Assembly (NCBI GenBank): GCA_020055645.1
Contig: CM034547.1
Location: 12,308,513-12,372,512 of the forward strand
DNA: 64,000 bases
Direction: 5' to 3'
Origin: Tomocerus qinae
Taxonomy: Eukaryota; Arthropoda; Collembola; Entomobryomorpha; Tomoceridae
The translations under genes were made by a program, and so were the position numbers. Below are positions 12,472-60,590 of the stretch, one piece after another. Position 1 is the first letter of the stretch. The number at the start of each line of letters is the position of its first letter. Under the pieces are notes generated by a model. The model was given only the letters and a program-made list of their open reading frames with translations. It ran no database searches and was not told the DNA's origin.

Positions 12472-15400
12472 ATGGCCCCAGATGATGAACGGGACCTAAT
12501 AGAGGCCGTGGTAACATGTGAAGGTAACCTTCATGATCCAGACTTTTCCGAACGGTTCCAAACTTTGGTTAACAAGCTTAAAACCGTTTTATATACAAGT
12601 ACGACAATCAATAAGTTAATTTTATTCATTCGTTATTGAGATTGAGATTTTGTTTGACTTCTTTATAAAATATATTTTTTATTTTTTAGAAGAGGAACCT
12701 TTCAAAATTAGAAAAGTTGAACCATGGAATTCAGTGCGAGTGACGATCAGTATTCCAAAAGAAGCAGCCCAACGGCTGAGGGTGTTAGCCCAACAAGGAT
12801 CCCATGTACTTCGACAGTTGGGCATACTTTCTGTGCAAGTAGAAGGCGACCAGGTATTAATTATTTATAAATTTAAAAAGTGCTCTAACTTTTGAACAGG
12901 TTTTTTAAAATGGTTTTTTAAACGATAAGGTGATCTCGTTGACATTGGCTGGGCGCTATAATAATGAACCTCAAGAAGTGATTTTACGACCGAGCGATGC
13001 GCCAATTCCTTCGACACCGTTGGCGGCATCGGCAGCCTCCTCTTCCTCCTCGTTGCCGTCAACAACAACAGTCCCCTTGCCGGTGGCAGCCATTGCAGCA
13101 GCGCCAGTTGCTGGCCCCAGTGGAGTGACATTAGACATTCTATCCTCATCAAGTTCTTCAGCGTTTAGGAGTCCTAATGTAGTCGCTCCTAGCGGTGAAG
13201 CAATCCCCTTGCCTCCAAAAAATGCTTCGGGGGCGCCACGACCTCCGCTTGGGGGACCCTTTCCCTTTGCGAGCATGACCCATGCCGCACAAGCTATGCA
13301 AAGAAACGAGAGTAGCAACCCACTGATAAACACAGCCAATAGTACAAACAACAGTCCCAGTCCTTCAATATCTCCCGCACCGTCTGGAGCACTGTCAACT
13401 CCAACGACACCAAATCCTACAGTGAATGCCGTTCCGCCGGTCAACAACAATAATAGTATTGCTCCAGTGAACTCGTCAGTGGGTGCCTCTCAACAAACAA
13501 CTGTGACAATACCTGTGCTAGTGCAGACACAGACTGCAAACCACACAGCTCCTGTTTCGGTTGGCTTATCAGTACAGGGTGTTCCTCTAACTAATATCAA
13601 TCTGACTAATGTAACAGTTAAAAGTGACCAAGTGACAAGGTACATTTTGAACAGCAGTAGTAATGTGAATACGAATGCCATTAGTCAGGCCAGCCCAAGT
13701 CAGAGCTTACAACTTCAACTTGTGAATGTGAATGTTCCACCGCCTTATCCTGGTGTGAATAGTAATAGTAGTAGTAGTAGTAATGTTAATAATAATAATA
13801 ATAACAACACTAACTCCAGTAATCATCTTGTTCATCATCATCATCTGAAACAGCAGGGAACTCTAAGTTCACCCAGGGTCCCTGTTACGTCTAGTTCTAA
13901 TTCCTCGGCCACTGTGACAATGGTTGGTGCTGCGGCTGCCGGTGTCAGTGTAGGACAGTCTTGCAGTCAGTCGAGTGGAGGGAAAAACAACGGTAATTTC
14001 ATCACGCCTTCCGAACCTGTACGACTTAGTGGCACTGGAACATTGAAAGCTAGAACTGTTGGTCAAGTTCAAGGTGAAGCCAAATCTAAACCTAGTCAAC
14101 CGCCGCCTCATGCCGTCCTTAAGTCTTTGCTTGCCCAAGGGAAGGAGCCCTCGACGCATCCGCATACTTCTCAAGCTCCGCCTCAGTTGACCTCTTCCGG
14201 AAAGCCCCGTCAATTTTTAATCAATCCCCTGACGGGTCACTTGGAGCCGATGCCCAGCGAGAGTAGCTCAGAGAGCGAAGCGAGTGAGGACGACGATGAG
14301 ACCGAAGTCGTCCAACCAACAAGAGGCAAAGGAAGTCGTCTTCATTTCACGACTCAAAAGAAATCTAACCTGCACAATCTGCCTCCAAACTTACAAATGT
14401 CCGATACTGCCAAAGCAATTGCCTCGATTGAGTCTGCCCAATCTTCTCTCATGCAAAAAATCAATGCTAGTTTACATCCTGGAAGAATTGTTCGCCCTGG
14501 CTCGCCTGCATCGTCATCTGGGAGAAAGTCGAGGGATGAGTCCATGAATCCTTCCTTATCCACAAAAGACATAAAAGAAAAAGACACTCCTCCGGTGGTT
14601 GTCAATAGTGTTCCAGGGGAGAAAATCAAACTAAGGCTTAAGTTAGAGAAGAGTGAACCTGTCATGTCCTCTGCATATAAAGTTGAATTTATGAAGAAGT
14701 CAGAAAAGAGTTCATTGTCATCATCCTCTGGCGGATTATCGTCATCAGGCGGTGGAACTTCACCTGCTCCTGGCGAACAACCCAGAGTTCCCCCACTTCA
14801 CATTTCCCTTCGAGGTAAAAATGCTGCAGTCGTCGTGAGTCCCCGCAGAGAGGATAAAGATAAAGATTTCAGTAAGTCAATGTTGGAACAATCCCTCGGG
14901 ACGATTCCTTCTGTCGTTAGCGAGAAAGTCTTGAACTCATATAAACTCAACAATAGCAAAAGAGCCAAATCCCGAATAAAAAGTAACGATAGTACGAACA
15001 GCAATGACAGCGACAAATTCTCTGGTAGCAAGAAGGCTACCAAAATATCCCGTCCAAGATTGTCTAAAGACAATAGTAGTGGTAGTAGTTGGAGTGACAG
15101 CACGTCAGTGCTCAGTGGGAATCTGGATGGGATTTCAGAAGATCCGTTGAAAAGTCGCTTGTACAATTTAGAAGACAAAAACCTCGTTTCGAGCCAGAGT
15201 CAGAATCAAAGTTTAGATTGTAATCATGCCAGTGCTGTCGTAGATAAAGTTTCCATCGTTCCTTCTAAAGTGCAACCAGGAGGGCTCGTAGATCTCATCT
15301 CAGGGAATAGTTCGATGACAAATATTGTAGGAAAAGTTAAAAAGAGTCGGCGAAAATCCGAATTGCTCACGGGTCGAACGACAGAAAACTTGAGTAGTAT

Positions 15401-18400
15401 CAGTAGCAATCTTCCATTGAATGTGACCTCACAATCAGCTGAAATAGCCCATGCTCAAGGTACGCAATTGATGAAACATCTGTCACAGTCACAATCCGCA
15501 GTCATGAACGATTTCCCTGTTCATGAAACGAATGTCGGGACTTGTAGAACTCCTCCCATCCCTATTTCCTGTGATATTGACAGCAAAGAAACAAGCAAGG
15601 TTCCAGAGAAAGTCTCTGTGTCTACTAGTACTCCAGGGGGATTGGTCCCATTAGGGACTCCTAGCACTCTGATAGCCAAAGATTCTTTACATAATGCTCC
15701 GAAGGCTACTCCAAAACCTCCAGACATTCCAAAACTTCACAAAGGTTTGTTTCATCAATTGTAGTAATAATACTTAGTAGTGCGTCATTTACAGGTAAAA
15801 AGTATTTCTGATCATGCATAAACGTTTCATTTTAATTGTTGCAGGTCCCGTGCCGAAGGAGCTAGAGATTATGTCGGTACAGGCCAACACAGTCATTCCA
15901 GAGGCAAAAGTGTCGAAAAGCCCGAAGCCGATGCCGGAGCTTTTGGCTCTTCCCCTATCTTCGCCGGACAAATCAACCGACCACTCGCATTTTTCTATAT
16001 CGTCAAATCCTCATCATCCGCTTACTCAATTCCACCTTCAATCCCCACAGTCAAAAGAACCGAAATCCTCCCACCCTGGAACGTCTGGCAATCCTGGCAG
16101 TGCAGGTGCAAGTCCCACATCCAACAGTGCAATATTATCTCGATCGCTTATGATGACAGAGATGGTAAATGCTCTGCGAACGTCTCAGTCGTCTGTATCT
16201 CCTTCACTACTTTCCCAACAACAATCTCAGTCTCAGCAATCATCTCAAAGTCAGCTGTTAAACAAATTACTTTCCGACCGGCAGAAGCACAAGGAAAAAG
16301 ACGCAATCCCTAGTTCTCCTTTTATACCGTCGGGGAGTACACTTCCAGTACTGAGAGAAAAGGAGCGTGATCAATCAAGCAAACCGACTCCTGCTGGAGT
16401 TTCTATCAGTACTGTATCTTCTGCCCCTCCCTCCACTTCCGCCTCCACCCCCAGCAACTTGAGTAATCGGGTGAAAGGAAACACACCTACAATTCTTCGC
16501 TCCAGAGTACAAAGTAGTTCAAGTCCCCGAATATCCACTGGTACGTCAACGGATAAGGAGCAAACGCCTGTGCCAATGCCAACTTTGACCCCTTCACCTG
16601 CTCTGAAAAGTCTCTTGGAGAAAAGAAAGCAGCAAATTCCTTCATCTAGTATTTTACCTGTACCTCCTATCCAAATTTCAACTCAGTCTCAGAAGAGTTC
16701 TCAAGAAACGGCGGAAGAGATGGAGGCAGAAGTGGCCAAAGTGCAGAAGCGTCTGAATCAAATCGGTGGGGTGGAGATTGAGGTGAGGAAAGTGTGCACG
16801 GAGGACGTGGCGATGCCCAGCAAAGGCCTGCGTGATAAGGTGGAGGTAGAAGTTCAGCTCTGTATACCATCGTCATCTTCGCCGCCAACTTGTGACCCGA
16901 AAGGGGAACCTCAACCTGCAAATGGTAGTACTCCCTCTATCCCTCCTTCGTTAGACCCCTCTACACCGACATCAGCATTAAGATCAGAGCTTGTGACAAT
17001 GGGTGCTCCCGTTCTTGATGGTTCTGGAAGCACATCTTCGTCAGGCAATACAAATCTTCATGCAAACGCATTATCTCTTCCATTGGCCGTTGCCTTACCG
17101 CCTATAACCAAAGCAGAAGATCCGAGTGGTGCCCCTGGAGAGGATTCTGGGATCGACTCAATGGATGCTCTCTCCGAGAAAAGCCCGAATCAAGGAGAGA
17201 GTCCTGCGAGAAAGGAAAGCGATCAGTTCTGTGATAGTTCGTCTGTGACGACGACGAAAAGTTCTCATTTTGTGGACACGACTAATACAAATATAATTGT
17301 TAGTAGTAATTGTAATAATATAAGTAGTATCGATGCCGCGGATCCCCTACCTCCCAATTTACTTTTGCAGCCAGCTGAGCGAGAGTCAGAATCAGATCTA
17401 GAGAAAGACCTAGGTGAAGATGATAAAACCAACGAGAATGATGCCGTTTTGACAATAACGTGCTCTTCTATACGTCCCCCAACTCCAATGGACATAACGG
17501 AAGAGAAAGATGCTGGCTTGGAAGAGGCATCTGTGAATGTAAATGACAGGGAGGAAGGAGTTAGTGATGGCATTGTGCAAAGGGTTGACAGCCCTGTCAG
17601 GAATCAAGTGCCTTGTGAATCAATTGACATAACCATGAACAAAAACCAATCTATGCAAATGGAAGAAATGCCGACCAATTCAACTCCTTCAACTACACCA
17701 CAGATCATTAGTATGGAAATTGACCCAATTTCCAATTCAGATCAATTGACCCAAACAGCTGTTTTATCAGAACCATGCCACCCACCCATTACAGCGACGC
17801 AGACGTTAGCACAAGTCCCAACTTTACCTTTGCCAGCAACAGAATTGCCAGATAAAGCCCAAAGTATCAAATTACTGGAGACACCCTCAATAGAAAAGCA
17901 ACCTGAGTTATCAGAAATCCCAGAATCCTTGCTTATGAACAAAGAATCAGAGACAACCCTAACAGCTGGGGAACAAGAACAAATTCAGATAGAGAAAGAG
18001 AAGATACAAGAGCCAACCGTATTCAAGGCGGAGGTAACAGAATCGACGTCAGTCCTAAATGCTACACCAGAATTGATAAAAGTTACTGAGCTGGAAACCA
18101 AACATACGAATGAACCGGAATTAATCAACACCTCTGTACCAGAACCAACACAAATTATTGCGTCTCCGGAATTAACAAAAATTATACTGGAATCTACAAA
18201 AATCGTATCAGAGAAATCAGCAAAAAGCGAGATAGTGGAATTAACCAAAATTGCGACCATACCAGAAACAACAGATATATCGATACCGGAAGCAAATATG
18301 ATTACGATACCAGAAACCACAAACAAAGCGATTCTGGAAGTAAATAATATTAAGATACCCGAAACGACAAAAATTTCGATACCCGAAATGACAAAAATTT

Positions 18401-21400
18401 CGATACCCGAAATGACAAAAATTTCGATACCCGATATGACAAAAATTTCGGTACCAGAGACAACAAAAACTTCGACACCAGAGTCAATAAAAATTTTGAT
18501 ACCAGAAACAACAAAAATTTCGACACCAGAATTTACAAGAATATCGACACCAGAAACAACAAAACTTTCAACAACAGAAGAAACAAAATTTTCTTCAACA
18601 AAAGTGATAAAAACTCTGACACCAGATACTACAGAAATTTCGAATCCAGAAGCAACTGACGGTTTGCCTTTGGACGCAATAAAAATTTCGAAACCAGACG
18701 CTACAAAAATTTCGACATCAGGAGTGTCAAAAACTACAGCCCCCGAAGCAAAAAAGACAACTTCAACTGAGGCCACGTTAATTACAACACCGGGGACAAT
18801 ATTTGCTAAATCAGAGTTTAGCAAAATTAATTTGGAGAAAACAAAAATTACTGTACTCGAACCCCCACAAATTTCAACGCCAAAACAAATGACAGTTCAA
18901 GAAATGAAGCGAAATATTCCACCAATCGAACCAATTCAGAAGACGATGCCAGAACCTAGCCAAATTACTGTACAAGGCTCAGCCAATTTATCCACATCTG
19001 TCAAATTGACTGTCGCATCAGAAATTGTCACTATTCCATCTAAAATAAATGTAGCGGAGCAAGAAAAGAAAACCCCTAAAGAACTCTCAAATGCTTTGGA
19101 AAGAACCAATATCACCATCAAAAGAACTGACGGTGAAACACCTCCCGCCAAGTTAAAGTTGGTTTTTGAGAAAAAGAAAACTGTAAAAAATACTGCACCA
19201 GTACCGAAAACAGAACGAAACCTACAATCAATAGCAGCAGTAGTACCACAAAAAGACGGTTTTGTAGATATTCCTGTTACAAAAGTTTTACCGGAAACTC
19301 CTGTGATTGCAAAAAAGCAACCAATTCCAAAGCTAAAAGAAATGGCACCGACCACATCTACCACCGCTAATGCTACAGTAAAAGCTCCTATGAAAGACAA
19401 GCAGACTGAAATTGGAAAGACAATAAAGGATACAATAGTCAAACCACAAAACGTAGTTAAATCAGTGAAAGTGGATAAAGTGAGTGGAAGTCCTCGTTTT
19501 ACTAAATCCCCTATAAAAATTCAAACGGTGAAAGTTGACGTGGAGAAAGTAACTACTCCAACTCAGACAGAGATTCAAGGAGTGCCAAGGCATTATAGTT
19601 TAATCACACCTAGACCATATGTATCCGTGTTGGAACAGAGGCCTGAGTCTAAAGATACCATTTTATCTCCCACTCCTCAAGTTAAACCAAAAGCAACTAT
19701 TGTAATTGAGGCTACCAAACCTGTGAAAAGTGAGAACCTCAACAAGGACAGTTCTAGTACCCAACTTCTGACAGTAAATTCTAATGAAAAGATACCCAGT
19801 GTAGTTGATATGGAATGTGACACTGTAACAGCAGCATCCCTTCATTCCTCGTCCTCGGTCATATCTGTGACCCCTCAAAATGCAGGAAATGAAGTAAAGC
19901 CTATTTCGGGACAAAAAGACGACCGGACGTGCCTGTCAGAAAAGGCTGGCGTTAGTGCTACGTCATCGGATAAACCTGTCAAACTTGGCATTGAAGCAAT
20001 TTCTGCTGCATTGAAAGGACGAGCGGCGGCTTCGATGATGCAGCCTAAAGTAAACACTGTAGTACAAACTATCCCTGTTTCGAAAGCGTCTGGTCCAGTA
20101 CCACTAACAATACCTATCTTACCTAAGAATGTACAAATAAATGTCCCAAAAGAACCAGTTGTTAAAGTAGAAAAAGAAATTCAAACGGCAAAATACATAC
20201 CTATGAGAAAACAAATGGAAATGTTGGAGGCTCAAAAGGCAGCTCTAGCTACTCAAATTGCTCAACGAGCGGGAATTTCTGCAAGCAAAGAGGTTGCGAA
20301 AACTACAGCACATATTGGTACGAAGAGCCAGCCTTCACTAAATAAAGAAGAGTTAATGAAAGAAACAGGTGAGAAAAAGCCAGTTACTGAAGTTGGAAAA
20401 CTAGAAAAAGTAGGTGTGCCAATTGTTCAAGATACTAAACCAAAAGAAAAAGCTACTACACCTGAGCCTGTGAAAGTGGAGTGTAAAAGTGGCCTCGTTA
20501 AAGATATATCTGGGTTGCAGCCCCTTGCCGATAAATCAAAAGAGGATGTTGCGGTTCCTGGAGTGAAGGAGCAAATTGCAGAAATAACAGCAGTAAAAAA
20601 GGTAGAGGAGGGAAGTAAAGGAGCGAATACGAATAGAGTCACCCATAACTCTTCCAGTAGTAGAGTTATGCCCACGCAAGAGAATCCAATGCCAAAACCG
20701 GAGGAAACCATTGGAACACCCGAAAAGTCAAAAGATAAATGTGAAGCAAAAAGTGGCGAATCTATGGAGCTCGGTGAGTCGGCAGTTGCAACTCCAACGG
20801 AAAATATACCAAAGGAAATTGAAGAAAAGGAGTCGGAAGCAGTAAAACCATCGGAACGACCGTTACCACCAGTTCTTTCAGTGGCTAAGGATCCTATTGT
20901 TGCCAATCCTAACTCTGCTGTTGAGAAAGAAAAAATCAACATTCCTCCAATGCCAACAACAACGAAAAGTGAAGGAACGAGGGAAGAGATTCCTGTTCAA
21001 GCCACTGTCGAGGCAAAACAATCAGAAGTAATTGAAACAGATGACACAGAGAAGAAAAAAGAGAAAGTAAGTCTGCATCCTAAAGACACACAGGCTACAG
21101 AATTTGAACGGGTGCCAGGGAAGATAATTGAGGCAAGACCGAGTTTCAATCTACAAGTCAGTGCCCAAGAAGAAGTGGATGAACTCAAGTTACAATTGGC
21201 AAGAAAGAATAATAGTCCGATGCAGCCAACGCCAGCTCATAATCCGACAAAAGACATTAAGCTCGATGGAACGGTTATGTTGACTCCTCGTCTACCTGAA
21301 ACTCCTGTCGAAACAAAGTTAACGAATCCTATGGCTAACGTACCACCTCCTAATGCTTCTAGCACTCAGCCAACCACTAGATCCCATTCTAAGGAATTGT

Positions 21401-24400
21401 CCTCAACCCTTTTGAAGGAATCTTTAAAAGAAAGGGCTGGAAATGTTTCTATTAAAATGAAAACTCCTTTGGTTGAACCGTCGGAAAATCCACCAGCTTT
21501 GGAGCCTGCTGTCTCAATTACTACAAATGCCCCAACTATTTCTATGACTTCCCACCATCCATCTAAGTCCGTTTCTTGCTCTCCTCCAAAGTTGCACAAA
21601 GCAGAGCCAGTGCAAATTAATTTGTCCCCAGACTCTGCTAATTCTTCTAATCGAGTATTTCAAGATAAACCACCGAAATTATCAAAAGCCACCGAAACAG
21701 ATAGATCTGTTGTTGTTCCGGAGCAAAGAAAAGTCGAAGAAAAGGACAAAGAACGACCGAAAACCGAATTAAAAACGCAGATGAACCTAATAGCTCCTGG
21801 TGGGAAAATTCAGTTCCCAGGGTTGAATCCTAATCAAAGTATTTTGACGAATATTAATATGTTCCAGTTGTCAAAGAGTGGCACTCTTGCAACGAAAATT
21901 CCACTTGTCTCTGGCACATCTCAATGTGTCACGACGAAAGTGAATCCAATGGTGACAATAGGCCCCATTTCCGTTCCACATCATAGCGGATCGACAACTA
22001 CAGCTGCAGGGGCGGGTCATCAACATCAAACAGTTATTGCTATTCATCCAAACGTAAGCCTACCAGCTAATATATCCCAACATCTACAACACCACCACCC
22101 AAGAGCAGTCACTCTTTCAGTCAATCCAAATATGGTACCAATTAAGCTAGTTACTCTTCCTAAACAAACACAAACTCAATTACAGTCTATGCCGAATCTC
22201 AATCGATCCTCTCCTTTACTGGAAGCCGTAATGACAAACACATCTGGACGAGCAGGGTCACCAAATCCAAAGGGAAGTCCTGTACAAAATACTCCTTTAA
22301 ACCTCGGTTCTGGAAATAACATTCAACTTGGGCCAATTTCCGTCGCTTCTGCCGCAGGAGGAACGGCTAACCCTGTCAAAGTTTTAGTTTCTCCTGTGAA
22401 AATGATGCCGCCAATGTTACTCAAATCTGTTATGATGGCAAATCCCCAAATCAGAATGGTCAGACCAGATTTAAGGCCTCCAGTTCCAGTACAACAGGAA
22501 GTAAAGAAAATCGAAACAGCGCCACCACAGAAGCTTGAACCTACCAAGTCTTCTGAAAAAGATAACCCAGAGTTGAAGAAAGATGCACCCAGGACGAAAT
22601 CTTCAACTTCGGATTCAATATACGAAGATGTAGATGGAGTAGAAATTCTTGATACGGGGTCGCCGGGAGCCAATGAAGAAGATTTACCATTTGAAGCGGA
22701 TATTATACATGATGAGAAAGACTTAGCGGATGTTCTCGCAGGAGAAATTATTGACACGGAAGTTATAGAAAACGGAATGAGTTGTTTGGATGGTCCTTAT
22801 GATTTTGGCAAAGACGGAGAAGATTCCCCTGGTCGCAGTGAATCCATCGACTCTCCTGATTTCCAAAGATTTTCTGCTTCCTCTAAAGGCTTTAAATCCA
22901 GTTGGCATTCTACCGCGACCAAAGAAGAATCCAAAGCACATTTGAATTCTATGCCAGACTCTCCCATTCCTGTCATGAGGTCATCCTCGCCTCTATACAC
23001 ATACTCTAATTCAAATCGCTCTGCTCGGAATTCTCGATCTCGAAGTCCTTCACCACCTGAACCAGATGTCCATGGAGAAGACCAAGAGATTATCGACTGT
23101 CTCTCCAGATCACCTTCACAGCCCAAATTAAGCCCTCAGAATAAGCCACCTCCAATTTTAGAACGGGAGAATAATGAATACGGAAGTCCTGTAAAACCAG
23201 AACTGATAGCAGACCATACGTCAGCTTCAACAGGAGATACGAAAGGAAAGTTAGATCAAGAATTGTCTATCGAAATACCGCCTGTTGATAGTCCTGCATC
23301 TGTAAATCAAGCTACCGATGAAAGAAAGTCTACACGAAGTACACGATCTAATACTCGGCTAGTGAGCCCTGATATTACGGCTTTCAGAAGTGACACGCCA
23401 AAGCCTCAAAAGTTTACTTCCAAGCCAGACTCATCTCTTTTGAAGAATAGTCCAAAGCCAAGTCCCACTGGAAGCTTGAAAATGCTTAGTCCGACAGTTG
23501 CAGGAACTCCATCATCATCTACAAGATCTAGCCCAGTTTCTAATCAGCTTTTGATTTCCACACCGGCAACTACAACGGCGAATTCCAGTTCGAGAGGGAA
23601 AATGCCCGTGACAAACAAAAGGAAGCGACAGGAGTCAGATAGTAGCAGTGCATCCAAAGATGAAAACATGGAAGAAAAAGCCGAAATTGATTTAAATTCC
23701 AGACCTGGGAAGAGAAGGTGCTCTGAAAATGCTGCAGAACTTATTAAAGCATGTATAGGAGTAGAAGACACGCCAAAAAGAAATAGTTCTCTTATTAAAA
23801 AGATGGAAGAATCCAAAGGAAAAGATCTCAAAGGAAAAATGGCAATGAGTAAGATCATTACAATAATTTGCTAATAATAATATGCCAATTTTGTCTATTT
23901 TCATTAAATAAACTCATTTAATTGTTTTTGTTTACAGTGACTGTTGTAGAAGAGACTGAAGACCAGCTAGATTTACTAATAGGAGATCCGACGTTAAGGG
24001 GGAGAGGTGGCAGATCAAGTAGAGGGTCATCTGAAGATAGGTCATCAAGTCGAGGTAGTAGTGTTCACCGCAATACAGTCCCATCTCGAGCGGTTACCAA
24101 AGATGACGAACAAAGAGAAGTCAAGTAAGGAGAAATAATTGTCATACCTAATTCTCTTTAATGGCATTTTCTTTTATGCAATCTCTAAATTCTGTCTAAT
24201 TGGATATTTCTAAAATAGGACTAACAGCAGAGTAAACAACCGTGTGAAGGATAATGCAACCAAATCCAAAACTTCTGGAAATGAAAGTGCACATGTGAAT
24301 TCTACTCCACAAAACAAAAAATCGGCTGGCAGACGTTCGAATAGATCGGCATTGGCAAAAGAAAAATCACCTTTGACTCCTGCTAAAACGAGAACTAATG

Positions 24401-30800: not shown

Positions 30801-30879
30801 TCAAACAATCATCTAGTAGGGTGAACAAAAATGTATAAGCCTATTCAATGCATACTGCTTTAAACAATGAATTATAATC

Positions 30880-31045
30880 CGGATTGGGAAATCTCGCTAT
30901 GATGTGATGAGATACGCATTTTGGATAAGCTTACAGGTGTGCGGATGCGGAGCACCTTATTCGAAAGCCCTTAGGAAGTACTAGTGGACTTGGAAGTTCT
31001 TTGTTCCAATTTAAAGTTGGAAATAGAAAAATAAATACACACTTC
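30880..31045 (+). repeat. Interspersed repeat family, copy A (partial)
   Basis: Shares GATGAGATACGCATTTTGGA, TATTCGAAAG, AAGTACTAG and GTTGGAAATAGAAA-type blocks, in order, with the reverse complement of 55255-55430 and partly with 50590-50665. The copy holds only the left half of the family's full sequence. Confidence 0.6.
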
Positions 31046-34000
31046 AGATGGCTGCTTAATGTCAATTCCTATTCAAATTATTTTTTGAAAAACTGATTTT
31101 CTGGACTTAACACTATTTCATGATACAATTGTTACAAATCTATTAGTTGACCCTTAAGTGACCTGTACTCAGCCAAAAGTGGGAATCAAGGTTTGCCACT
31201 AGTAATAATATATTTTTCCCCCATTTTTACTTTTACGGTACTACCGTAAAATTTTAAAACCCTTTACCTAATTACACTACAATATTATGCATTATTTTGT
31301 TTGCTTTAAAGTGTACAATACATGTACCTTATCTATCACCATATTATCATTCGTATTGGATGTCTATAAATATATGTACTCTACGTACTATCCTATTTTT
31401 AAATACAACACAATAACACAAAATATATCTACTGCCTATGTAAAAATTCCCACTCCCTGGGAAAATTCATTATAAAAATATTGTTGGTTAGGGGGTGTTT
31501 TTTCAATGTTTAACTTTGTTATCTAGAATCTGGAATAGACTGCAGACAATACTCAACAATGTTACATCAATACAAGTCTAAAAGAGATACAAGGAAAATG
31601 GATGTGAAATTATTGGCAATGAGTAAGAACCACAATTTCCTTTTTGTATAAATTCATTGTACAAATCGAATTTATAGTATTATAATCTATATATGTGTTT
31701 AGATTTCGTTTGCAATTATTTGGTTTCCGTCTTGGTGAGGAAAACAATACTATATTTTTTTTCTGCAATTTTCCGGATAACATTGTGGTAATTTCTAGGA
31801 AAACATTTGCTAAATTAGTAATGGCTGTTATTACTGGTAAAATTAACATACAAACAGCTAAATATAGCTTTAGGGTGAAGGCCAAAATGATTTACTCGAC
31901 TCATTAAAATATTAGATTGTTCTTTGCATATCACTATATTAATAGCTACATGATTTTTCATTCAACTGATCTCTGCTGCCACATTTTTCTATATCTACAG
32001 GCTATAACTTCTATTAGCTCGACTCCAGAATTAATGAGTTGGAGTATAATTGACAAATTAAACCAACGGTTTTACAATTTTGTTATCTTTTCCATTTCCA
32101 TCATAACCATTGTAAGCCTTTCTCGGCCGTTGTAATCCAAAAAATTTTGAAAATATTTTTGAGACAAGTTGATCAGACAAACCCCAGGTAGGGTAGAACC
32201 GCCAGACATCATGACCGAGCATAACCAATTAGTACATTCGATAATAACAATATTATTTAAATTTAAAACAGTGAGGTGTATTTATTTAACTAAAGTAAAG
32301 CGGAATAAATATTTAAAGTAACGGAAAGTGTATTTGCTAAACTAATCATTTCTATAGTTTAAACGTGTCATTGGCACATATGCATTGGACTTTGAATGAA
32401 AACGTCAATTCGCCAGTCGTATTTATGTTTCAAAACAACGATTACAAATTGCAACATTTTTCTTAGCACACTGTACGTGCTAGATTTCAACTAGTAATAA
32501 AATATCACTACTTCTCCCTTCAGTATCCCCTTTTCTCCACGACTGCGACCGTCCGTAGGACGGACTAAATACTAATTACAATAACTTTTGATGGAGATGA
32601 TAATTTGATCGGATAAGAAATGCTAACATAATAATAATATAATTGTACAATACATAACTAAGTCGTATAGGTAGGTATATTTTATGTATTAATGAAACAG
32701 AACAAAAGTCTCAAGGGAATGTTTTACAAAAACAGTTTAGCTTGACTTGAGACTTGGACCTAAAGGATGTGAGTTTGAACAGAGTACACGTTGGAAGTAT
32801 AGAGTCAGTCAATTCTTGCCGACATCAACATCATCATGAAGTATATTCATGCACATTCGTGTGAATCAGCAGGGTAAACAAGAAGTTGATTGAACATTGA
32901 ACGTTACTTTATCTTTGTGAAGGAAAGCGTTAGATGTAGCTTCAAATGTTTTGAGTGGATATCGGTTAGAGGAAATCTATCTCCAGCCTCAGAAGAATCA
33001 ATTTTTACACGAAATCTCTTTTAATTCCTTGTCAATCTGACATTTTATCGCATGTATTTGAATACTATAATTTTTAAGAAGTTATCTCCAAATTCCATGA
33101 ATATGTAATTTTTTCCATTTTTACTAAGGCCAAAAGTCGATATGTATTTGCAGCTTAAAAAACTAAGATGAATAAAAATAAGTGATTGATACTATGGCCA
33201 TGACTTTTCATCATGCCTGGAGTAATTATTATAGGTAATAATATAATTGCTAAATGTTGGACTAAGTACCAGTTAATAAACAATAATTTTCCAAAACCAT
33301 TTACCATTCACCTTTTTTTGTTACAGGCATCACTCACTCATACACGCATAGGCAATTAAACCCTTTTTTGTTCCGTGATGGCTGTACGAAAGGAAATGAT
33401 ATTCAAATGTTGTAGTGGATCGAGGTGCAATTGCAACACACACATGAGGTGCAAATACTAGTGGAGGTAGAAGATAGATGAAGATGTGCAGGTGCAACCC
33501 ATAATTCTAATCATAGAAATATTCGCCCTTGCATTGCGTGCATTGCATATTATGTACTTGCTACAAATCATACATTATAATTATTCGCAATTTGCAACTG
33601 CTACAATCAAATTGCGTGTTATTTCACAGTACCTGCACAGGTAAGACAATATCAATAATAATCGCTTTATTTATGATTTACTACAATATTACAAATGAAT
33701 GAATTGTTTCTTTCCAGCTATTAATATTAATCAGCTCATTGTCACAATGAACAGATTTTCAAACTACATCGTTGTCCAGCGTAGATTCATGAGGCCAAAC
33801 CGAAGTTATTGACATTTTTATGACTTTCTGGATTCCATACTCCAGATTTAATACCTGGCATTCAGAGACATGCAGTCTAGTACAAAATTTCACATTTACG
33901 ATGACATTTTTACTGATGCAACCAGTTGTTAATTACAATAAACATGCAATGAAATTGACATACAATACTAAATAGAAACAGAAACAGCTTTTTAGTCAAA

Positions 34001-39430: not shown

Positions 39431-40338
39431 TGTAACTGTAGGAGATACCATAACTATTTATGACCAATCTTTAAAATTGCAAATGCATGATGAATTATGA
39501 CTATATATATTACCTTGCTTGTCACATAAACTCTTATCTGACAAAACATTTTTTATACTTTAAAAGTTGATAAGTAGTTCATGGTCGACCGAACGTCAAT
39601 CCTATTACGCAATGTCGCGAATGAGGTTGCAAATTATGCGCAGAAATCAAAATTTGATTTGTTATTTAAAGTAACTTAGCTATAAGTTCATTCTTCATTA
39701 AATTACATACTTTTACACGTGTATGTACGCCCTTATGCATTGCATGACCTTTCGAATTGTTTAAGAATGTACATAATGCAGGATCATTGTAGGATATTCA
39801 TCTGTGCGTAGATACTTCACTCTGCCACATAAAATCAATTACTTTAACTAGCCTCTAGTGCACTAGCAGCTTGCAGCATGGAACACAAAACATGTTATAA
39901 GTAAAAAATGCACAAAAAGGTGAATGTTCGCATTATTGGTTTGTTGCAGCGTAATTGGCCACGTTTTTTATGGGTTTCTGCACCAAACCGGTTATTTTCA
40001 TATGATTATATTTCACGAATCCCTATTGCCTAATTAAAAATTGTTGTACCATTTTAGGTGAGCCAATATGGATTTTGGATGGATACAGCAGCATTGCAGC
40101 GTTTTCATAACATGCTTGTTTGTATATTTGCATTCTACTCTACACTGTATCTGTACTCTGTACACAGTACACTAATGTCCACTAACATTACTTCAGGTTC
40201 ATTTTTAACTGAAACTAATGCTAATTGTGTATTAATTATATTCGTGAACACGAACACTTGGAATTTGTAGTATATGTACATTTTGTACATACCAATGGTT
40301 ATAATTTATGGTTTTTATGAGTGATGCATTTGATATCT
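39431..40338. other. Gene-free spacer
   Basis: AT-rich sequence between the hAT MITE and the minisatellite. The open frame at 40058-40270 has no motif support; nothing else was recognised. Confidence 0.5.
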
Positions 40339-40727
40339 GAATCTCAAGATTGGTTTTATGAATCTCAAGATTAGTTTTATGAATCTCAAGATTGGTTTTA
40401 TGAATCTCAAGATTGGTTTTATGAATCTCAAGATTGGTTTTATGAATCTCAAGATTGGTTTTATGAATCTCAAGATTAGTTTTATGAATCTCAAGATTGG
40501 TTTTATGAATCTCAAGATTGGTTTTATGAATCTCAAGATTGGTTTTATGAATCTCAAGATTGGTTTTATGAATCTCAAGATTGGTTTTATGAATCTAAAG
40601 ATTGGTTTTATGAATTTCAAGATTGGTTTTATGAATCTCAAGATTGGTTTTATGAATCTCAAGAATGGTTTTATGAATCTCAAGATTGGTTTTATGAATC
40701 TCAAGAATGGTTTTATGAATCTCAAGA
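40339..40727. repeat. 21-bp minisatellite, about 18.5 copies
   Basis: Near-perfect tandem copies of a 21-bp unit (TTTTATGAATCTCAAGATTGG read from one phase) with only a few point differences. Because 21 is a multiple of three and the unit lacks stops in some frames, the array produces long artificial open frames on both strands (MNLKIGF and RFIKPIL heptads). It directly abuts the GC-rich MITE end at 40728. Confidence 0.95.
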
Positions 40728-40873
40728 TGGGGGAGGGGAGGGGGCCAGCGGGCCCGCCCTCTCCCCGAAATTGAAGAAAAGAAAGGAATTATTACCTTAA
40801 AACCCAAAAATTTTTCATTTTCACTTATAATTCGTCGGGCCCCCTCCGAAATTTTCTTCTGGCTGCGGCCCTG
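40728..40873. mobile_element. MITE right part abutting the minisatellite
   Basis: GC-rich stretch ending CTGGCTGCGGCCCTG, the complement of CAGGGCCGCAGCCAG, which fits the local terminal pattern. G/C runs at 40729-40765 and 40837-40852 mirror each other as in a short palindromic element. The expected left terminus is absent; the 21-bp array begins where it should lie. Confidence 0.45.
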
Positions 40874-43375
40874 CGTACTTGCACATCTTTAGAAAAGATT
40901 AGATTATGATAAGTTAGGTTAGTATACGGTGGGGCGGGTGGCTTCCCCCACCCTAGGATCTGCCTTTTAGTCTGGCTAGAGTTAAAACGGTTGCTTTGAT
41001 CGGTTGTCGGTACAGTGCAGGGCAGGGGTATTGATACACTAATTATTTACCTTTGTCCATGGTCATGGTATTATCCTGGCACTTCCAACCGCCCCAAATA
41101 TTGCCAGCTGCATGTATATTATTTAGCAATAGAAGCTGTCTGTTCTGTTTACTGTATATAAAAGTAAGGCTATTATTTTAAGAACAAAAATTTTTGTAGT
41201 ATCTAAATTATTTATTTAAGCCTCAATAAATGGATTCACAACAATAGCAATTGTTCGACTTTACGAAATACAATAAATAATTTATTATGTATGGCATGTT
41301 TCGTTTATATGCTAATGCAGAGTGTATATAGCTATTAGTAAATCAGTTGCCAGGTGCTTATGTAATTATTGACGTCATCGTACTCGAATCTACAGATTTA
41401 GGGGTCAGTGTAGATGGTCCAGACAATATAATATGCAGATACCCCACCATCCTAAGATGCCACACCATAAAAACCTAACCAAATAAGACCAAATTAAAGG
41501 TAATCTTACCTAACCAATGTCAATGGGTGTGGTCTTTATTTTCTTTCCATGTGTCCCATTCTTATGATTACATTACATCAATTATTATTATTACTATGCA
41601 TAAATTTATTTCCTCCTATGTTCCCTATTTCGCATAGTATGTCAGTATGTGTGTCGCTGTCTACCTATCTATGCCATGGACAATGCGGCTTTTTGTTGCA
41701 ATGCACATGCGCGTAACACATGCGAGATTAAATCACGTGACTCTAGACCTCTGATGACTAACATCGGTATACTTAGAAATGTTACATAATTTGTTAGCTT
41801 TCGAGCGATTTATTATTACACGACCTTGTACGACGAATCGAACTGGAGTTACATCGATTTTCAGCTATTTTTAAGTTTTTTACCAACTTCCCCTATCAGG
41901 GGAAGGTTGTAATCGATCTAGTAGTAGTATAGTACGTAGACCCTAATAATCGGATGCAGCCAAGGCCTGGCGTAGCCTCTTTGTCATACCTTTTTAGTTT
42001 CTCTTATTACTCCTATTAGTACCATACATTCTCCCCTGAATCCCATACAATCTCATACAACTTTCTATAACACACCATACAAAGCGCCACAATTCACAAA
42101 AATATCTTGCCATACAAAAGTCTCATGTGTGCCATACAAATTCCTTTTTCCCAACATTAACAATTAATGTGGCCATGTCGTGTTATACTGAGTCTGGATT
42201 TACCATCCACCCACTTCAAGCAAGGAATTTTTCTATATACACATTCTACCAAAGTAACACTAATTAATGTCTTGTTTTGAAAAAATAGGACTCGTAAAAA
42301 TGATGATACAATGGGTATCGTGATATTACTACTAGTTCAGGGCCGCTATTTTACTTGTAGTAATTAAAAATACCCCTTATGTATGTACAGTGCTCGTTTG
42401 CAAAAAATATGTGGTTATTGTTTTCAATGAAAAGCAATTCTTTTTTGAAGGATGACTAGTACTAGTTTGACTGCTAAATATTCACAGTAAATAAATATAT
42501 AATAATAATATGTAGTGTAATAGCTGATAGCATGTAATAATAATATTGTAATATTTTTGCAAATTAGTCGACAGAGCTAATGGGAATGAAAAGTGAGAAT
42601 TTTTGTCTCAATGTAGAAGAGTTAGCAATTTCTTTGCTTGTATTTGAGTAGAAGTTCTCAGGTTATCGAGAAGAAGTATCGACGAATCTCATTAATTTCT
42701 CATGGTAACTCTTGCATTCAAACAACAATTTCAATCGTGGGTGAAAAATGTCTTTGAAATAGAGCCAAATGCTGTGTAGCATATAAGTATGAGATTTTTG
42801 CAGAATGCAATTGCATCAATGATATAAGATATTTTTGTATTGCATACTGTCTATAGCTGGATCAAGGTTTCTTCATCAGATAAAGCTTATTATCAAGGTC
42901 CACTAGTTACTACAACTTTTATGTACATTAACATTACGCATGCAGCTACTTACTGTAAAGTACCAAAACAAAATTAACATTTAATGACTCTCCTTTGCAG
43001 TTGTAAAACGCATGGAAGCCTTTGAATCTTCGCACTTTTGACAGCAGACAACTTCCTGTTCTATTCGGAGTCGAATACGTAGCTTTTGATACATTTTTCA
43101 GAATTCAAGGATCCACATAATATAGAAAACCTTTTCGGCAGGACAGTATCTATACAGGATAAGTTATAATAGCATGCAATTACAAACAAGATATCAGCAA
43201 AAGTCTAAGGTCATGGGAAGCTTTATTCTGGAATCCATTAATAACTATTACTTTAGGTAGTCTGAAACTCTCTTCTATATTAAATTTATCATGAATGATG
43301 TAAACCAGGGATAATTAATAATTTACACTATATACTTGTTTCATTTTGTTACTATATTGTTTCCACGAAGGGAAT
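40874..43375. other. Gene-poor region with small palindromes and a motif cluster
   Basis: No coding frame is supported. Items seen: a ~75-bp block at 41625-41705 that recurs inverted at 60515-60590; a palindrome at 41883-41909 (CAACTTCCCC/GGGGAAGGTTG); and a cluster of CCATACAA motifs at 42043, 42075, 42110 and 42132 with near-matches at 42022 and 42053. Confidence 0.5.
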
Positions 43376-55060: not shown

Positions 55061-55430
55061 GCTTAAGGGTGGCTTCCCCCTTTTGCCTGCGATGAGAACA
55101 GGTCACAGGGTCAACTTATAGCTTTGAAACAGTTATATTCTGAAAGTTCCAGTTTTTGCCTAGGGCACCTGAAGGCCGGAATTTTGAAAAAAAAATTTTA
55201 AGTATTTTTAATCTTTTTTTGAAAATAAAAAAATTGAGTACGAATTTACATTGAGCTGCGAAATATGGTGTCTTTTTTCCTATTTCTAATTTTAAATCGG
55301 AAAAAGGGCTGTCAAGTGCCCTAGTACTTTTTGCGGTCTTTCGAATAAGCTACTACACGCTTCTGTACGCTTATCCAAAACGCTTATCTCATCGCAGGGA
55401 GATTTCCCTACTCATAATGCATTGCCGAGA
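55061..55430 (-). repeat. Interspersed repeat family, copy C (longest)
   Basis: About 370 bp; in minus orientation it begins GGGAAATCTCCCTGCGATGA and ends CCACCCTTAAGC. It aligns in order with copies A (30880) and B (50584). CCTGCGATGAGA near its left and TCTCATCGCAGG near its right form a 12-bp inverted pair, suggesting a MITE-like fold. No coding capacity. Confidence 0.65.
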
Positions 55431-57097
55431 AAGTTGAGGGTTCATTCATAAGTAACAATCATCAGCTCATATTATCTCATATCTCCTTGCCCCAAACCAC
55501 CAAATTCTCATTCCTGGTTAATCCCGCATTACATCCTAAATACGCCAACCTTGCGTTGCAGCGGCTTCGTTCATAGATTGACCAACTATGTGAACGGCCC
55601 GTTGCGAAGCTGTGTTCAAAGGGTTAAGAGGGAAGTAGTCCTTAAATAGTTCGATGAAAATAAAGATATGTATATATTCAGCAAAAATCTATAGCAAAAT
55701 GTACTTGGTCACAGACTCAATAATATATACATGATAATAATATTCCTTTTCTCAATCCCCAACAAACATTTCCAAGAACTGGATAATATATTTATTTAGA
55801 GCTTATTATAACCAGAAATATGATTTAAATATGCACCAATTGCAATTATAACAAAGGCTAGGTATTATCATTTGACGTTTACCTAACACAATTTTAATCA
55901 CAGTATGTAATTATCAATCTGTCTGTCGTCTGTCTGTCCGTCCGTCTCACTGTAAACAAAATTTTGTTGGATAGGCAGAGAATAAATTGTGTCTGAAGTC
56001 TGAGTGAGTGTATGTCGTCCGTCGTGTGTATTCAAAATGGAATAGGAATAATTAATACAATGCAATGTAGTTTTATTCGTTCATTGATATTCTTATTCTC
56101 ACAATGCCCATCAGAACACCTCCTTCGTTATTTTGAACTTTAGTTTTAGCCACAGAAATAGATGAGTATATATATAGCTTTTAGCATAAGCAGCATTAAA
56201 TAAGCGCTTTTATATACCATCTACTAAGATGAAAGTGTTGGTGATCCACCGTCTAAAATATCTAGCAGTTTTGCACTATCGATGATATAGAAAAAGTGAA
56301 CTTGTGTGAAAAAACGTAATATGGCAAGTTGGCAAGTACCTATGAACTTGCACTACCACTGTGTGTTCTGTGCCGTTCGTACCTGTATAAGTATCTGTTT
56401 CGTATAACAATGTACAACATAATACAACCAGAGAGTTGGCAACGCAGGTTGTAAAGTAGAGTCAAAACCGTAATGCCTTTCAATGGTACAAAAATCAATC
56501 CCTATTGTCTTCGATTATGCATCAGTAGGTATGGTAAAAATTTCGCGCCGTTTTACGGCGGAAGTTGTCGGATGTATTAGTAGGTATCGGTAAATTTTCG
56601 CGCCGTTTAACGGCGGAGCTATTCATCAATGTTATAAAAAAAATATTCTCCACTTTTGCTCTATTTCCCTGTGTATTATTAGAAGCTCTTTGAATACAAC
56701 TGTGTATATAAAAAGTACATTGCTGGAATGTTACAATTACATAGCTATATTCACGCACAGATTTATGTGGTGATGGTTGAGTAACTCAAGTTATACAAGG
56801 AGTGGTAGCGAACACACCAACTGCCAATCTTCCTTACCTCTTACCTAACCTACGTCAAAATTACTGGACTGGTAATCAAGAAGCAACTTTTCATTCACAC
56901 ACAACTATTTTATTCTCCACCTCTTTGGAATTTGTTTACTCCATCCCTTACCTTCCTCACATATAATATACATCATCCTGCTCCTAGCAGTATCCCTTTT
57001 TATACGTCAAGATTATGGTAATACGCATAAACTGAATCGCTGTTCGGTTGACTTAGGTTAGTAATAGCAAAGAAAGGATAGTTAGTTTATCTGTTTT
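55431..57097. other. Gene-poor flank with simple repeats
   Basis: No gene seen. Contains CTGTCTGTC/CCGTCCGTC simple repeats at about 55921-55947 and the 55-bp duplication at 56522-56631. Confidence 0.5.
56522..56631. repeat. 55-bp tandem duplication with CGCCG palindromes
   Basis: Two adjacent 55-bp units beginning TCAGTAGGTAT and TTAGTAGGTAT, each containing CGCGCCGTTTTACGGCGG or its near-copy, a perfect GC hairpin with a TTTTA/TTTAA loop. GC content is much higher than the flanks. Confidence 0.7.
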
Positions 57098-57420
57098 TAG
57101 CTCGCCTGATAAAGCGAGCTTATAGAATCGCACAGTCCGTCCGTACGTCCGTCCGTCCGTCCGTCCCCACGCTAACTTTCGAAAGCAATGACGGATATTG
57201 ACCAAACTTGGCAAAAACAATGCCTACGGACCACTGACGATCCCTATTGAATTGGGGGTAAATCGGTCCATTGGTTACCGAGATACCGCGCGCTCACTTT
57301 GTCTTCATTTTGATAGTCAAAGTGATAATTTGCCATTAAATGGACATTGGAAAGTTCAAAGGCGTTTCCTATAAATTGTTAGCGTGATAGTATAAAATAT
57401 TTAAATCCGCTTCTACCAAA

Positions 57421-57860
57421 TTTTAATTTTCTGTAGATTTTCATAGTCAACATTAATCAATTTTGATTTTCTGTTGATTTTCATAGTCCACATTAATCAA
57501 TTGTGATTTTCTGTTGATTTTCATAGTCAACATTAATCAATTTTGATTTTCTGTTGATTTTCATAGTCAACATTAATCAATTGTGATTTTCTGTTGATTT
57601 TCATAGTCAACATTAATCAATTTTGATTTTCTGTTGATTTTCATAGTCAACATTAATCAATTTTGATTTTCTGTTGATTTTCATAGTCAACATTAATCAA
57701 TTTTGATTTTCTGTTGATTTTCATAGTCAACATTAATCAATTTTGATTTTCTGTTGATTTTCATAGTCAACATTAATCAATTTTTATTTTCTGTTGATTT
57801 TCATAGTCAACATTAATCAATTTTGATTTTCTGTTGATTTTCATAGTCAACATTAATCAA
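57421..57860 (+). repeat. 40-bp satellite, left arm, 11 copies
   Basis: Exactly periodic 40-bp units, each ending CATTAATCAA and containing TTTTCTGTTGATTTTCATAG and GTCAAC. The unit itself can pair (GTTGA/TCAAC). Copies differ by only a few bases. Confidence 0.95.
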
Positions 57861-57987
57861 TTTTGTTTTTCTATTGATTTTTCAAATAATATAGCTTCGT
57901 TTCCTTATAATATCAATATCTGAGTTTTTAATATGTCATAGCTACATATATAAAGACCCAATTCTGAAAGTTTGATCAACATCCGTA

Positions 57988-58431
57988 CGCTCGGTTTTGT
58001 GCTACGTGGTAGTACTTTTCGTCTATCAAAATGTGTACACGCTAACCCTTTAATCAGGCGAGCTTCTGTTACGGCTTGCTGTAGGTTTTTTTCTGACTAG
58101 AAAGAGGTTCGTAACAGGGAGGGAGAGACCCGGTATTCTCACATTAGTATAATTATTGCATTGCAAATTATCTCCATTTCATAAGATTTTTTCACAGAGA
58201 CCAACTCTACTGACTATAAAAAGTACCTTGTTCATTTTTTTGTGGTAGGTCAAGGCTACTGAAATGGACTGTAGGCGTCATCTCATCACGTCAAATCAAA
58301 TTCTCAATGTTTGCTGGAGTCAAATATGTAAAAACCTACAGCAAGCCGTAACAGAAGCTCGCCTGATTAAAGGTTAACGTGTACACATTTTGGTAGACGA
58401 AAAGATCTCGCACGTAGCACAAAACCGAGCG
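57988..58431. mobile_element. 444-bp TA-flanked MITE nested in the left arm
   Basis: Begins CGCTCGGTTTTGTGCTACGT, ends with its complement, and has inverted repeats of about 105 bp, flanked by TA on each side. The opposite arm of the host palindrome shows the uninserted sequence (CCGTACTGATAG at about 59470 in complement), so the boundary and the TA duplication are read directly. No coding capacity; a Tc1/mariner-type non-autonomous element. Internal to its repeats is AATCAGGCGAGCTTCTGTTA, which resembles the host element's own end. Confidence 0.88.
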
Positions 58432-59600
58432 TACTGATAGTTTCAGTCAGCCGTGAAACCGCTATTTGGGAGTTGCACCTGGATACGCATTCTGATTGGT
58501 CGAAATTTTTTGAATCCAGCGATCTGATTGGTTATTGCAGTAATGAATATTCTATAGATTCCCCAGATGGGGGAATTTTAACAACATGTTTCAATTACTA
58601 CAAAATACAATACAAGTCCATGAATATTATACACAATGTACACAAAGTTTAAACGTTGCAATATATAACAACGAAGTCGAATCATTATGAATCATTTACC
58701 CATATTAATAATATAAACATTCGTTTTGCAAAACACCAGCTATAAACAGAAGCACAAATCGATGTGATGGGCTAAAAAACGTTGATGTTGAACTGCGAAT
58801 TCAATAATACATTTCTTCATTTGGTTACAACTGATCACATACATTTACTAAACTGATAATAGCAAAATAGCAATAACAACTTACAACAACATCAGGAAGA
58901 GTTCGGCTGAAATTAGGCAGCAGTACTTCGTTGCCGCCGTTGCCGTTGGGAGGTATCGGGGATTAGCGGGAACGAAGTACCGCTGTTTAAATTCAGCCGA
59001 AGAGTTCTACAGAGTTCTGTCTGATGTTATTGGGATTGCTATGTTATCAATTTAGTAAATATATGTGATCTTTCGTCACCAAATAGTAAAATTATATTGA
59101 ATTCGCATTTTAACAACAAGGTTTTAAATTAATGTTCATAATATAACATCGATTTGTACTTCTGTTTATAGCTGGTGTTTTGCAAAACGAATGTTTATAT
59201 TACTATGGGTAAATGATTCATAATGATTCGACTTCGTTGTTATATATTGCAACGTTTAAACTTTGTGTACATTGTGTATAATATTCATGGACTTGTATTG
59301 TATTTTGTAGTAATTGAAACATGTTGTTAAAATTCCCCCATCTGGGGAATCTATAGAATATTCATTACTGCAATAACCAATCAGATCGCTGGATTCAAAA
59401 AATTTCGACCAATCAGAATGCGTATCCAGGTGCAACTCCCAAATAGCGGTTTCACGGACTACTGAAACTATCAGTACGGATTTTGACTTTCAGACTTTCA
59501 GAATTGGGTCTTTATATACGTAGCTATGACATATTAAAAATTCAGACATTGATATTATAAGGAAACGAAGCTATATTAATTTTTTCTTAAATCTACGGCA

Positions 59601-59800
59601 AATCAAAATTGATTAATGTTGACTATGAAAATCAACAGAAAATCAAAATTGATTAATGTTGACTATGAAAATCAACAGAAAATCAAAATTGATTAATGTG
59701 ACTATGAAAATCAACAGAAAATCAAAATTGATTAATGTTGACTATGAAAATCAACAGAAAATCAAAATTGATTGATTGTGAGTATTAAAATCTACAGAAA
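59601..59800 (-). repeat. 40-bp satellite, right arm, about 4-5 copies
   Basis: The same 40-bp unit in inverted orientation; four good copies, then degenerate ones to about 59880. Fewer copies than the left arm, so the arrays have changed length independently. Confidence 0.9.
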
Positions 59801-60514
59801 ATTAAAATCGGTTAATAATGATTATTTAAATTTAAAGGAAATCAAAAATAAGAAATTTGACTATAAAATTGAATAAAAATCCAAAATAGATTTTTTTCCA
59901 TCGTTTAATAGTTATTTTCTGGTTTAATTTGCCTTATTATAAAATCTCAAATTTGGTAGAAGCGGATTGAAATATTTTATACTATCACGCTAACAATTTA
60001 TAGGAAACGCCATTTAACTTTTTTATGTCCATTTTATGCCAAATTTTCACTTTGACTATCAAAATGAAGGCAAAGTGAGCGCGCGTTATCTCAGCAACCA
60101 ATAGACCGATTAACCCCCAATTCAATAGGGATCGTCAATGGTTCATAGGCATTGTTTTTGCCAAGTTTGGTCAATATCCGTCATTGCTTTCGAAAGTTAT
60201 CGTGGGGACGGACGGACGTACGGACGGACGTACGGACGGACGTACGGACAGACTGTGCGGTTCTATAAGCTCGCTTACTCAGGCGAGCTAAAAAGTCATT
60301 TCCATTCCAATTTGTCTAGAATTATAGCATCATGTCAATAAATAATCTCCTCTTTTCTTATATTAGTTTTACAGATACATACAACACTATAGGCCCCCAG
60401 TACTAATGCTGAATTTCAAAATGATTAGGCATACTAACACTGTTTAATTTTCGAAATAAGCTAATGTTCATTCATATTGGACTACCTTGTTTTATGAAAT
60501 ATGCATTGTATATA

Positions 60515-60590
60515 CGCGCATGTGCATTGCAACAAAAAGCATCATTTCCCATGGCATAGATAGATACTTGCGGTTGCGACATAGGAGTAA
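60515..60590 (-). repeat. Dispersed repeat shared with 41625-41705
   Basis: In complement it contains CTATCTATGCCATGG and CTTTTTGTTGCAATGCACAT followed by GCGCG, matching 41665-41715 almost base for base. Family and ends are not recognised. Confidence 0.6.

What the first reader, a model, noticed from the sequence alone, without database searches (positions are those of the whole stretch)
57100..60288. 3.2-kb near-complete palindrome with satellite arms
Almost the entire element is its own reverse complement down to a centre near 58950: outer ends, CCGTCCGT tracts, a 40-bp satellite, a 340-bp block and the central GTACTTCGTT...AACGAAGTAC core. Arms of this length are rare in assemblies because they tend to be deleted. 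If transcribed, the RNA would fold into a hairpin of more than 1 kb, a natural Dicer substrate, so it could act as a hairpin-siRNA locus.
Basis: partly seen in the sequence, partly recalled or inferred. Interest (0 to 1): 0.8.

Follow-up and report, generated by a model that had tools for sequence, protein, structure and literature searches.

The report
Foldback-type DNA transposon with satellite arms
A 3.2-kb mirror-image stretch of probably animal DNA is most likely an immobile-by-itself jumping element of the 'foldback' type, with a second small element sitting in one arm; it is real and well preserved but of a broadly known kind.

Summary
The palindrome is real. 57100-60288 pairs with its own reverse complement nearly end to end about a centre at ~58951. 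A mirror artefact is very unlikely: arm divergence ranges from 0 of 254 to 29 of 216 bases, and one arm alone carries a 444-bp inverted-repeat insertion (57988-58431) whose empty site survives in the other arm. Per arm: terminal mini-hairpin, GTCC tract, about 250 bp of unique flank, 40-bp satellite array, inner block, diverged core. No Pfam match in six frames. This is the flank/tandem-repeat/inner/middle layout of foldback transposons such as Tetris (PMC4079207, passages); even the resemblance of the tandem unit to the flanking domain recurs (left flank tested; 1 of 500 shuffles as good). It lacks the 8-9 bp target duplication of Tetris: TA at the exact ends, or a palindromic AGCT, is what was found. 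Superfamily and copy number are open; no host genome is held. An RNA would fold into a long hairpin, but transcription, siRNAs and targets are untested, and a foldback transposon explains the locus without them. New member of a known kind; modest interest.

The parts
57094..60294 (.). whole inverted-repeat element with its symmetric flanks (TTTTTA ... TAAAAA); element proper 57100-60288
57100..57119 (+). left terminal mini-hairpin GCTCGC-8 nt-GCGAGC
   Evidence: sequence
60269..60288 (-). right terminal mini-hairpin, inverted copy
   Evidence: sequence
57135..57166 (+). GTCC microsatellite, left arm
60206..60253 (-). GGAC microsatellite, right arm (also read as 12-bp ACGGACGGACGT units)
57164..57417 (+). 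left flanking-domain unique part; a stretch of it resembles the 40-bp unit over 36 bp
   Evidence: 235 of 254 aligned bases identical to the other arm; unit resemblance, 1 of 500 shuffles as good
59954..60209 (-). right flanking-domain unique part
57419..57881 (+). 40-bp satellite, 11.6 copies, homogeneous
59589..59892 (-). 40-bp satellite, about 7.7 copies, outer units degenerate
57886..57971 (+). inner domain between satellite and nested insertion, left
   Evidence: 82 of 85 aligned bases identical to the other arm
59494..59578 (-). inner domain, right
57988..58431 (.). nested 444-bp inverted-repeat element (ends CGCTCGGTTTTGTG), present in the left arm only; flanks TA/TA (GTAC, CGTA, CGTAC also fit)
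   Evidence: arms and empty site; flanks
58430..58710 (+). near-identical block, left (perfect 58451-58704)
59198..59478 (-). near-identical block, right (perfect 59204-59457)
58492..58533 (-). two CCAAT-box-like sites 32 bp apart (58492-58501, 58524-58533), left
   Evidence: pattern RRCCAATSRS; that this is the NF-Y consensus is recalled
59375..59416 (+). the same two sites in the right arm (59375-59384, 59407-59416)
58711..59197 (.). diverged core (middle domain) with a 28-nt unmatched centre 58938-58965
   Evidence: 187 of 216 aligned, 14 gaps, I24

Best explanation
A non-autonomous foldback-type (long terminal inverted repeat) DNA transposon. Shown: nearly the whole element is inverted repeat; its ends are sharp and the symmetry stops a few bases outside them; it has no protein-family match; its arms hold a microsatellite, a satellite array and, on one side only, a nested inverted-repeat element. 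Inferred: a transposase made elsewhere recognised the GCTCGCCTGA ends and moved the element by cut and paste into an AT-rich palindromic site (TTTTTAAAAA if TA is the duplication). The 40-bp array grew from a piece of the flanking domain by slippage or unequal exchange. The arms extended inward until only a short core separated them. After the palindrome existed, a 444-bp element inserted into the left arm. A recent arm-to-arm conversion then probably reset the 254-281 bp block next to that insertion. Any RNA crossing the centre would fold into a long hairpin, but that is most likely a by-product.
For: Terminal inverted repeat ending at GCTCGCC/GGCGAGC with TA on both sides. Domain order as in foldback elements: flank, tandem repeats, inner, middle (compare Tetris passages, and the longest Galileo copy, with tandem repeats and TE fragments in its TIRs). 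The doubled tandem unit aligns with the left flanking domain over 36 bp, 1 of 500 dinucleotide shuffles as good; Tetris passages report the same kind of relation (37 bp, ~80%). No Pfam family up to E 1 in 6 of 6 frames of 57.0-60.4 kb. One-sided nested insertion with the empty site in the other arm. Mismatch rates heterogeneous among the five chosen blocks, chi-square 37.2, 4 d.f., p 1.6e-7; near-identical block against unique outer part p 4e-5, against core p 5e-9. A 254-bp perfect run is unlikely at 92.5% identity (2.5e-9).
Against: Only one copy was seen: none elsewhere in the window, and no genome of this organism can be searched, so mobility of the outer element is not shown. A 2-bp duplication is weak evidence (two random flanking 2-mers agree 7% of the time; TA on both sides 0.8%), and AGCT on both sides is an alternative. 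No 7-11 bp duplication, as in the foldback families read about, was found. No transposase was found, so the superfamily is open. The conversion step is weaker: the near-identical block does not differ significantly from the short inner stretch just outside it (p 0.06; run probability 1e-4 at 96.5%), and the blocks were chosen after seeing the alignment.
Confidence: 0.83

Rival explanations
1. Hairpin-RNA (hpRNA) endo-siRNA locus: transcribed across the centre, diced into about 21-nt siRNAs that silence a target matching the arms.
For: A very stable fold; a 254-bp perfect stem; CCAAT-like pairs in both arms, 4 of the 6 RRCCAATSRS matches in the window. Passages of PMC10317233 describe an hpRNA whose arms come from a transposable element.
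Against: No transcript, small-RNA or target data. No target-like match in the rest of the window at E 1e-3. The main features are accounted for by a foldback transposon; satellite arrays, a nested insertion and a diverged core are not needed for an hpRNA.
Confidence: 0.06
2. Nested series: the inner palindrome (about 58434-59477, ends CTGATAGTTTCAGT) is itself a TA-flanked element inserted into the centre of an outer palindrome, and the 444-bp element landed at the same TA.
For: Arm identity rises from 82/85 outside to 279/280 inside this junction, and the joined left arm and the right arm both read CCG-TA-CTGATAG there.
Against: It needs an outer palindrome with no spacer at all as the target. 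The rise from 82/85 to 279/280 is not significant on its own (p 0.06). The inner core is the most diverged part, not the youngest.
Confidence: 0.08
3. In-place inverted duplication of ordinary sequence (palindrome formed by template switching), not a mobile element.
For: Near-total symmetry; a 28-nt asymmetric centre of the kind expected for long palindromes (recalled).
Against: Sharp ends bearing a terminal mini-hairpin and TA, a simple-repeat tract and satellite arrays; the 10-bp end motif GCTCGCCTGA recurs in both arms of the nested element (4 exact matches in the window, all in these two elements).
Confidence: 0.05
4. Assembly or library artefact (mirror chimera).
For: Long palindromes are a known source of misassembly (recalled).
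Against: Aligned arm bases differ by 7.5% in the unique outer part and 13% in the core, arrays differ in length, and one arm has a private insertion.
Confidence: 0.02

Closest known systems
Tetris foldback transposon of Drosophila virilis/americana (PMC4079207, passages read)
   Same: Non-autonomous; long TIRs in flanking, tandem-repeat (outer) and inner domains around a middle without apparent coding capacity; the tandem unit resembles part of the flanking domain.
   Different: Tetris has ~220-bp units and 8-9 bp target duplications; here the unit is 40 bp, no 7-11 bp duplication was found, and the arms nearly meet. No sequence comparison with Tetris was made.
Galileo, P superfamily, long-TIR copies (PMC4168063, passages read)
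   Same: TIR extension by internal tandem repeats, recruitment of non-TIR sequence into the TIR and TE insertions within the TIRs; palindromic target motif.
   Different: 7-8 bp target duplications; sequences not compared here.
Tm1 Mutator/foldback family of root-knot nematodes (PMC3169594, passages read)
   Same: Composite TIRs of varying length, mean TIR identity within an element 93%, close to the unique outer part here; one copy has a nested inverted-repeat element.
   Different: Mostly 9-bp target duplications; some members encode a putative transposase or carry other sequence; sequences not compared here.
Drosophila hpRNA loci (PMC10317233, passages read)
   Same: Long inverted repeat able to form extended dsRNA; one described hpRNA has arms from a TE.
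   Different: Recognised by Dcr-2-dependent small RNAs (biased to 21 nt in the example shown) and a primary transcript that rises in dcr-2 mutants, neither of which could be tested here.

Membership tests
Foldback-type DNA transposon (structural class) | Long inverted repeats making up most of the element | tested here: met
Foldback-type DNA transposon (structural class) | Tandem repeats inside both TIRs | tested here: met
   40-bp arrays at 57419-57881 and 59589-59892
Foldback-type DNA transposon (structural class) | Middle domain without a transposase in non-autonomous copies | tested here: met
   no Pfam family to E 1 in 6 of 6 frames
Foldback-type DNA transposon (structural class) | Target-site duplication | tested here: inconclusive
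   TA or AGCT at both ends; too short to prove
Foldback-type DNA transposon (structural class) | Dispersed copies with the same ends | tested here: inconclusive
   none in the 64-kb window; no host genome held; pattern scans of viral and prokaryote collections gave one hit in seven scans, judged chance (L001)
Mutator- or P-type foldbacks (Tetris, Tm1, Galileo) | 7-10 bp target-site duplication | tested here: not met
   none of 7-11 bp with up to 1 mismatch, boundaries shifted up to 8 bp at either end
Mutator- or P-type foldbacks (Tetris, Tm1, Galileo) | Related transposase or ends | not tested
   no transposase in the element; family end sequences were not fetched
TA-target elements (Tc1/mariner/IS630 type; the type is recalled) | TA duplication | tested here: inconclusive
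   TA fits both elements, but GTAC, CGTA or CGTAC (nested) and AGCT (outer) fit as well
hpRNA locus | Transcript able to form long dsRNA | tested here: inconclusive
   the fold is strong; no evidence of a transcript
hpRNA locus | Dicer-dependent siRNAs (~21 nt in Drosophila) and a target | not testable with these tools
   no RNA data; no other match in the window

The most novel reading that the evidence does not exclude
A foldback transposon that has become its own silencing source: its arms are kept identical by arm-to-arm conversion over the 254-bp stretch that holds the paired CCAAT-like sites, it is transcribed across the centre, and the resulting hairpin feeds siRNAs against the family.
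Probability: 0.05. Interest if true: 0.6.

Novelty: new member of a known kind. Interest (0 to 1): 0.3.

Why it matters
The element is an unusually complete example of foldback structure. One copy suggests how a tandem unit can arise from the flanking domain, how an array is homogeneous inside and decayed at its edges, and how palindrome arms may be partly reset by conversion, while an insertion in one arm marks the order of events. If copies exist genome-wide they could seed satellite DNA, as argued for Tetris. If it is transcribed, it would be a ready source of double-stranded RNA.

Tried and rejected
Looked for the host genome: none held. Looked for copies by exact patterns in viral contigs (1 hit in 5 scans, L001, whose surroundings at 2300-2500 do not resemble the element by eye) and in prokaryote genome contigs (none). 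These collections are not expected to hold an animal transposon, so the misses mean little. Four sequence strings searched in papers matched 36 papers, 20 listed; by their titles these are on other subjects, and only the listing was seen. Six-frame Pfam search of the element (E 1) and of 60.3-64.0 kb (E 0.1): nothing; 2 of 6 frames of 46.0-57.0 kb (E 0.01): nothing. Rejected: mirror artefact (unequal arms); membership in foldback families with 7-10 bp duplications. I first took the nested element's duplication as certainly TA; one search showed that GTAC, CGTA or CGTAC fit the flanks as well, so TA is only the simplest reading. The right satellite array was tiled out of phase and redone. Searches for a TA-target foldback in print: 0 papers held all five terms; 2 papers held three of four terms, listing only. 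That is weak evidence of absence. Paper searches were used as listings; six papers were read in passages, none whole. (bivalve satellite papers) showed no element of this layout in the passages seen.

Full report
Observation. The window holds a real long inverted repeat at 57100-60288. Symmetry runs a few bases beyond, to 57094 and 60294, around a centre at ~58951 with 28 unmatched nt. It is far beyond chance: the longest perfect inverted match within it is 254 bp, against 20 bp in window positions 1-57000.

Anatomy. From the outside in, each arm has a 20-nt terminal mini-hairpin (GCTCGC...GCGAGC), a GTCC tract, about 250 bp of unique flank, a 40-bp satellite array, an inner block and a core. 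Arm identity over aligned bases is uneven: 40/44, 235/254, 82/85, 279/280 and 187/216 from outside to core, gaps not counted; chi-square 37.2, 4 d.f., p 1.6e-7, for blocks chosen after seeing the alignment. The left array has eleven full units, each within 2 differences of the consensus, plus one degenerate inner unit. The right has four clean units (0-1 difference) with degenerate ones on both sides. The first left unit shares its variants with the right unit at 59809 (TTTTAATTTTCTGTAGATTTT), so the left array may have lost its oldest outer units (inference).

Nested element. 57988-58431 (444 bp) is itself an inverted-repeat element: a 114-column inverted alignment at 92%, which takes in some 10 flanking bases. 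It is present only in the left arm; the right arm keeps the empty site. The insertion therefore came after the palindrome existed, unless the element was later lost cleanly from the other arm, which is less likely. The flanks allow TA as the duplication, but GTAC, CGTA or CGTAC as well. Its arms carry GCTCGCCTGATTAAAG, closely like the outer element's ends; GCTCGCCTGA has 4 exact matches in the window, the two outer ends and the two nested arms, and 2 further places with one mismatch. This is unexplained, but suggests related end signals.

Ends of the outer element. TA lies on both sides (0.8% by chance for TA twice), and the target with one TA removed would read TTTTTAAAAA, a palindrome. Galileo passages note that TE target motifs are palindromes extending beyond the duplication. 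AGCT on both sides is an alternative. No duplication of 7-11 bp with up to one mismatch was found with boundaries shifted by up to 8 bp.

Coding. No Pfam family was found in 6 of 6 frames of 57.0-60.4 kb at E up to 1, and the longest stop-to-stop frame overlapping the element is 93 aa. The host is probably an animal: stretches matching KICSTOR C12orf66 and Aladin (the latter below Pfam's cut-off, as expected for split exons), and a SNORD58-like RNA, lie at the left of the window. The species is unknown.

What it is. The combination fits a non-autonomous foldback-type DNA transposon. Tetris has the same domain order and the same trait that its tandem unit resembles a stretch of the flanking domain. 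Here the doubled 40-bp unit aligns with the left flanking domain over 36 bp, with 1 of 500 shuffles as good (the right flank was not tested). Galileo copies show TIR extension by tandem repeats, inward recruitment and TE insertion. The Tm1 passages report 93% mean TIR identity and one copy with a nested inverted-repeat element. The target duplication differs from all three, so I file the locus under the structural class and not under any of these families.

How it works (inferred). An unlinked transposase acts on the ends; tandem repeats may be extra binding sites, as the Tetris passages report for Galileo. The near-perfect block beside the nested insertion looks like recent arm-to-arm conversion that stopped near the heterology. 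A 254-bp perfect run has probability 2.5e-9 at the unique outer part's 92.5% and 1e-4 at 96.5%. Against this, the block does not differ significantly from the 85 bases just outside the insertion (p 0.06). Selection on that block, or a separate inner element, remain possible.

The hairpin-siRNA idea. A transcript crossing the centre would fold strongly: inner 1049 nt -717 kcal/mol against -225 +/- 8 for 20 shuffles. That is a property of any long palindrome. Two CCAAT-like sites 32 bp apart occur in each arm, 4 of the 6 window matches of RRCCAATSRS. Whether they drive transcription, and in which direction, is unknown. The marks of hpRNA loci, Dicer-dependent siRNAs and a primary transcript that accumulates without Dicer (passages), could not be tested. 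The idea stays open at low probability.

Verdict. Observation confirmed; a natural but ordinary kind of object, in good condition, with an informative nested insertion and an uneven divergence profile.

Noticed in passing
window 7287-7359 (-) and 6856-6922: SNORD58-like C/D snoRNA above the Rfam gathering score, with a direct second copy about 91% identical some 430 bp away.
   Followed up: partly
window about 1-9000 (-): Exon-like matches to KICSTOR C12orf66 (KICS2; 2 of 3 minus frames) and to Aladin (AAAS; 3 of 3 minus frames, below Pfam's curated cut-off).
   Followed up: partly
window 12909-15764 and 15799-23874 (+): Two very long open frames (951 and 2691 aa); the second, which was translated, looks low-complexity and rich in Ser, Thr and Pro, with a 24-bp repeat at 18259-18593. 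No Pfam match at E 0.01 and no PDB sequence match.
   Followed up: partly
window 40338-40728: 21-bp tandem array, 18.6 copies at 96%, open in one frame on each strand over about 150 codons.
   Followed up: no
window 57988-58431: The arms of the nested element carry GCTCGCCTGATTAAAG, closely like the outer element's ends but set inside the element.
   Followed up: partly
window 30865-31118 / 55190-55424 and 41662-41779 / 60449-60566: Inverted pairs of diverged similar stretches (70% and 74%), perhaps other dispersed repeats.
   Followed up: no
window 56517-56562 and 56572-56617: Two 46-nt direct repeats, 85% alike, each with a small hairpin-like motif (CGCCGTTTTACGGCG in the first), just left of the element.
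   Followed up: no
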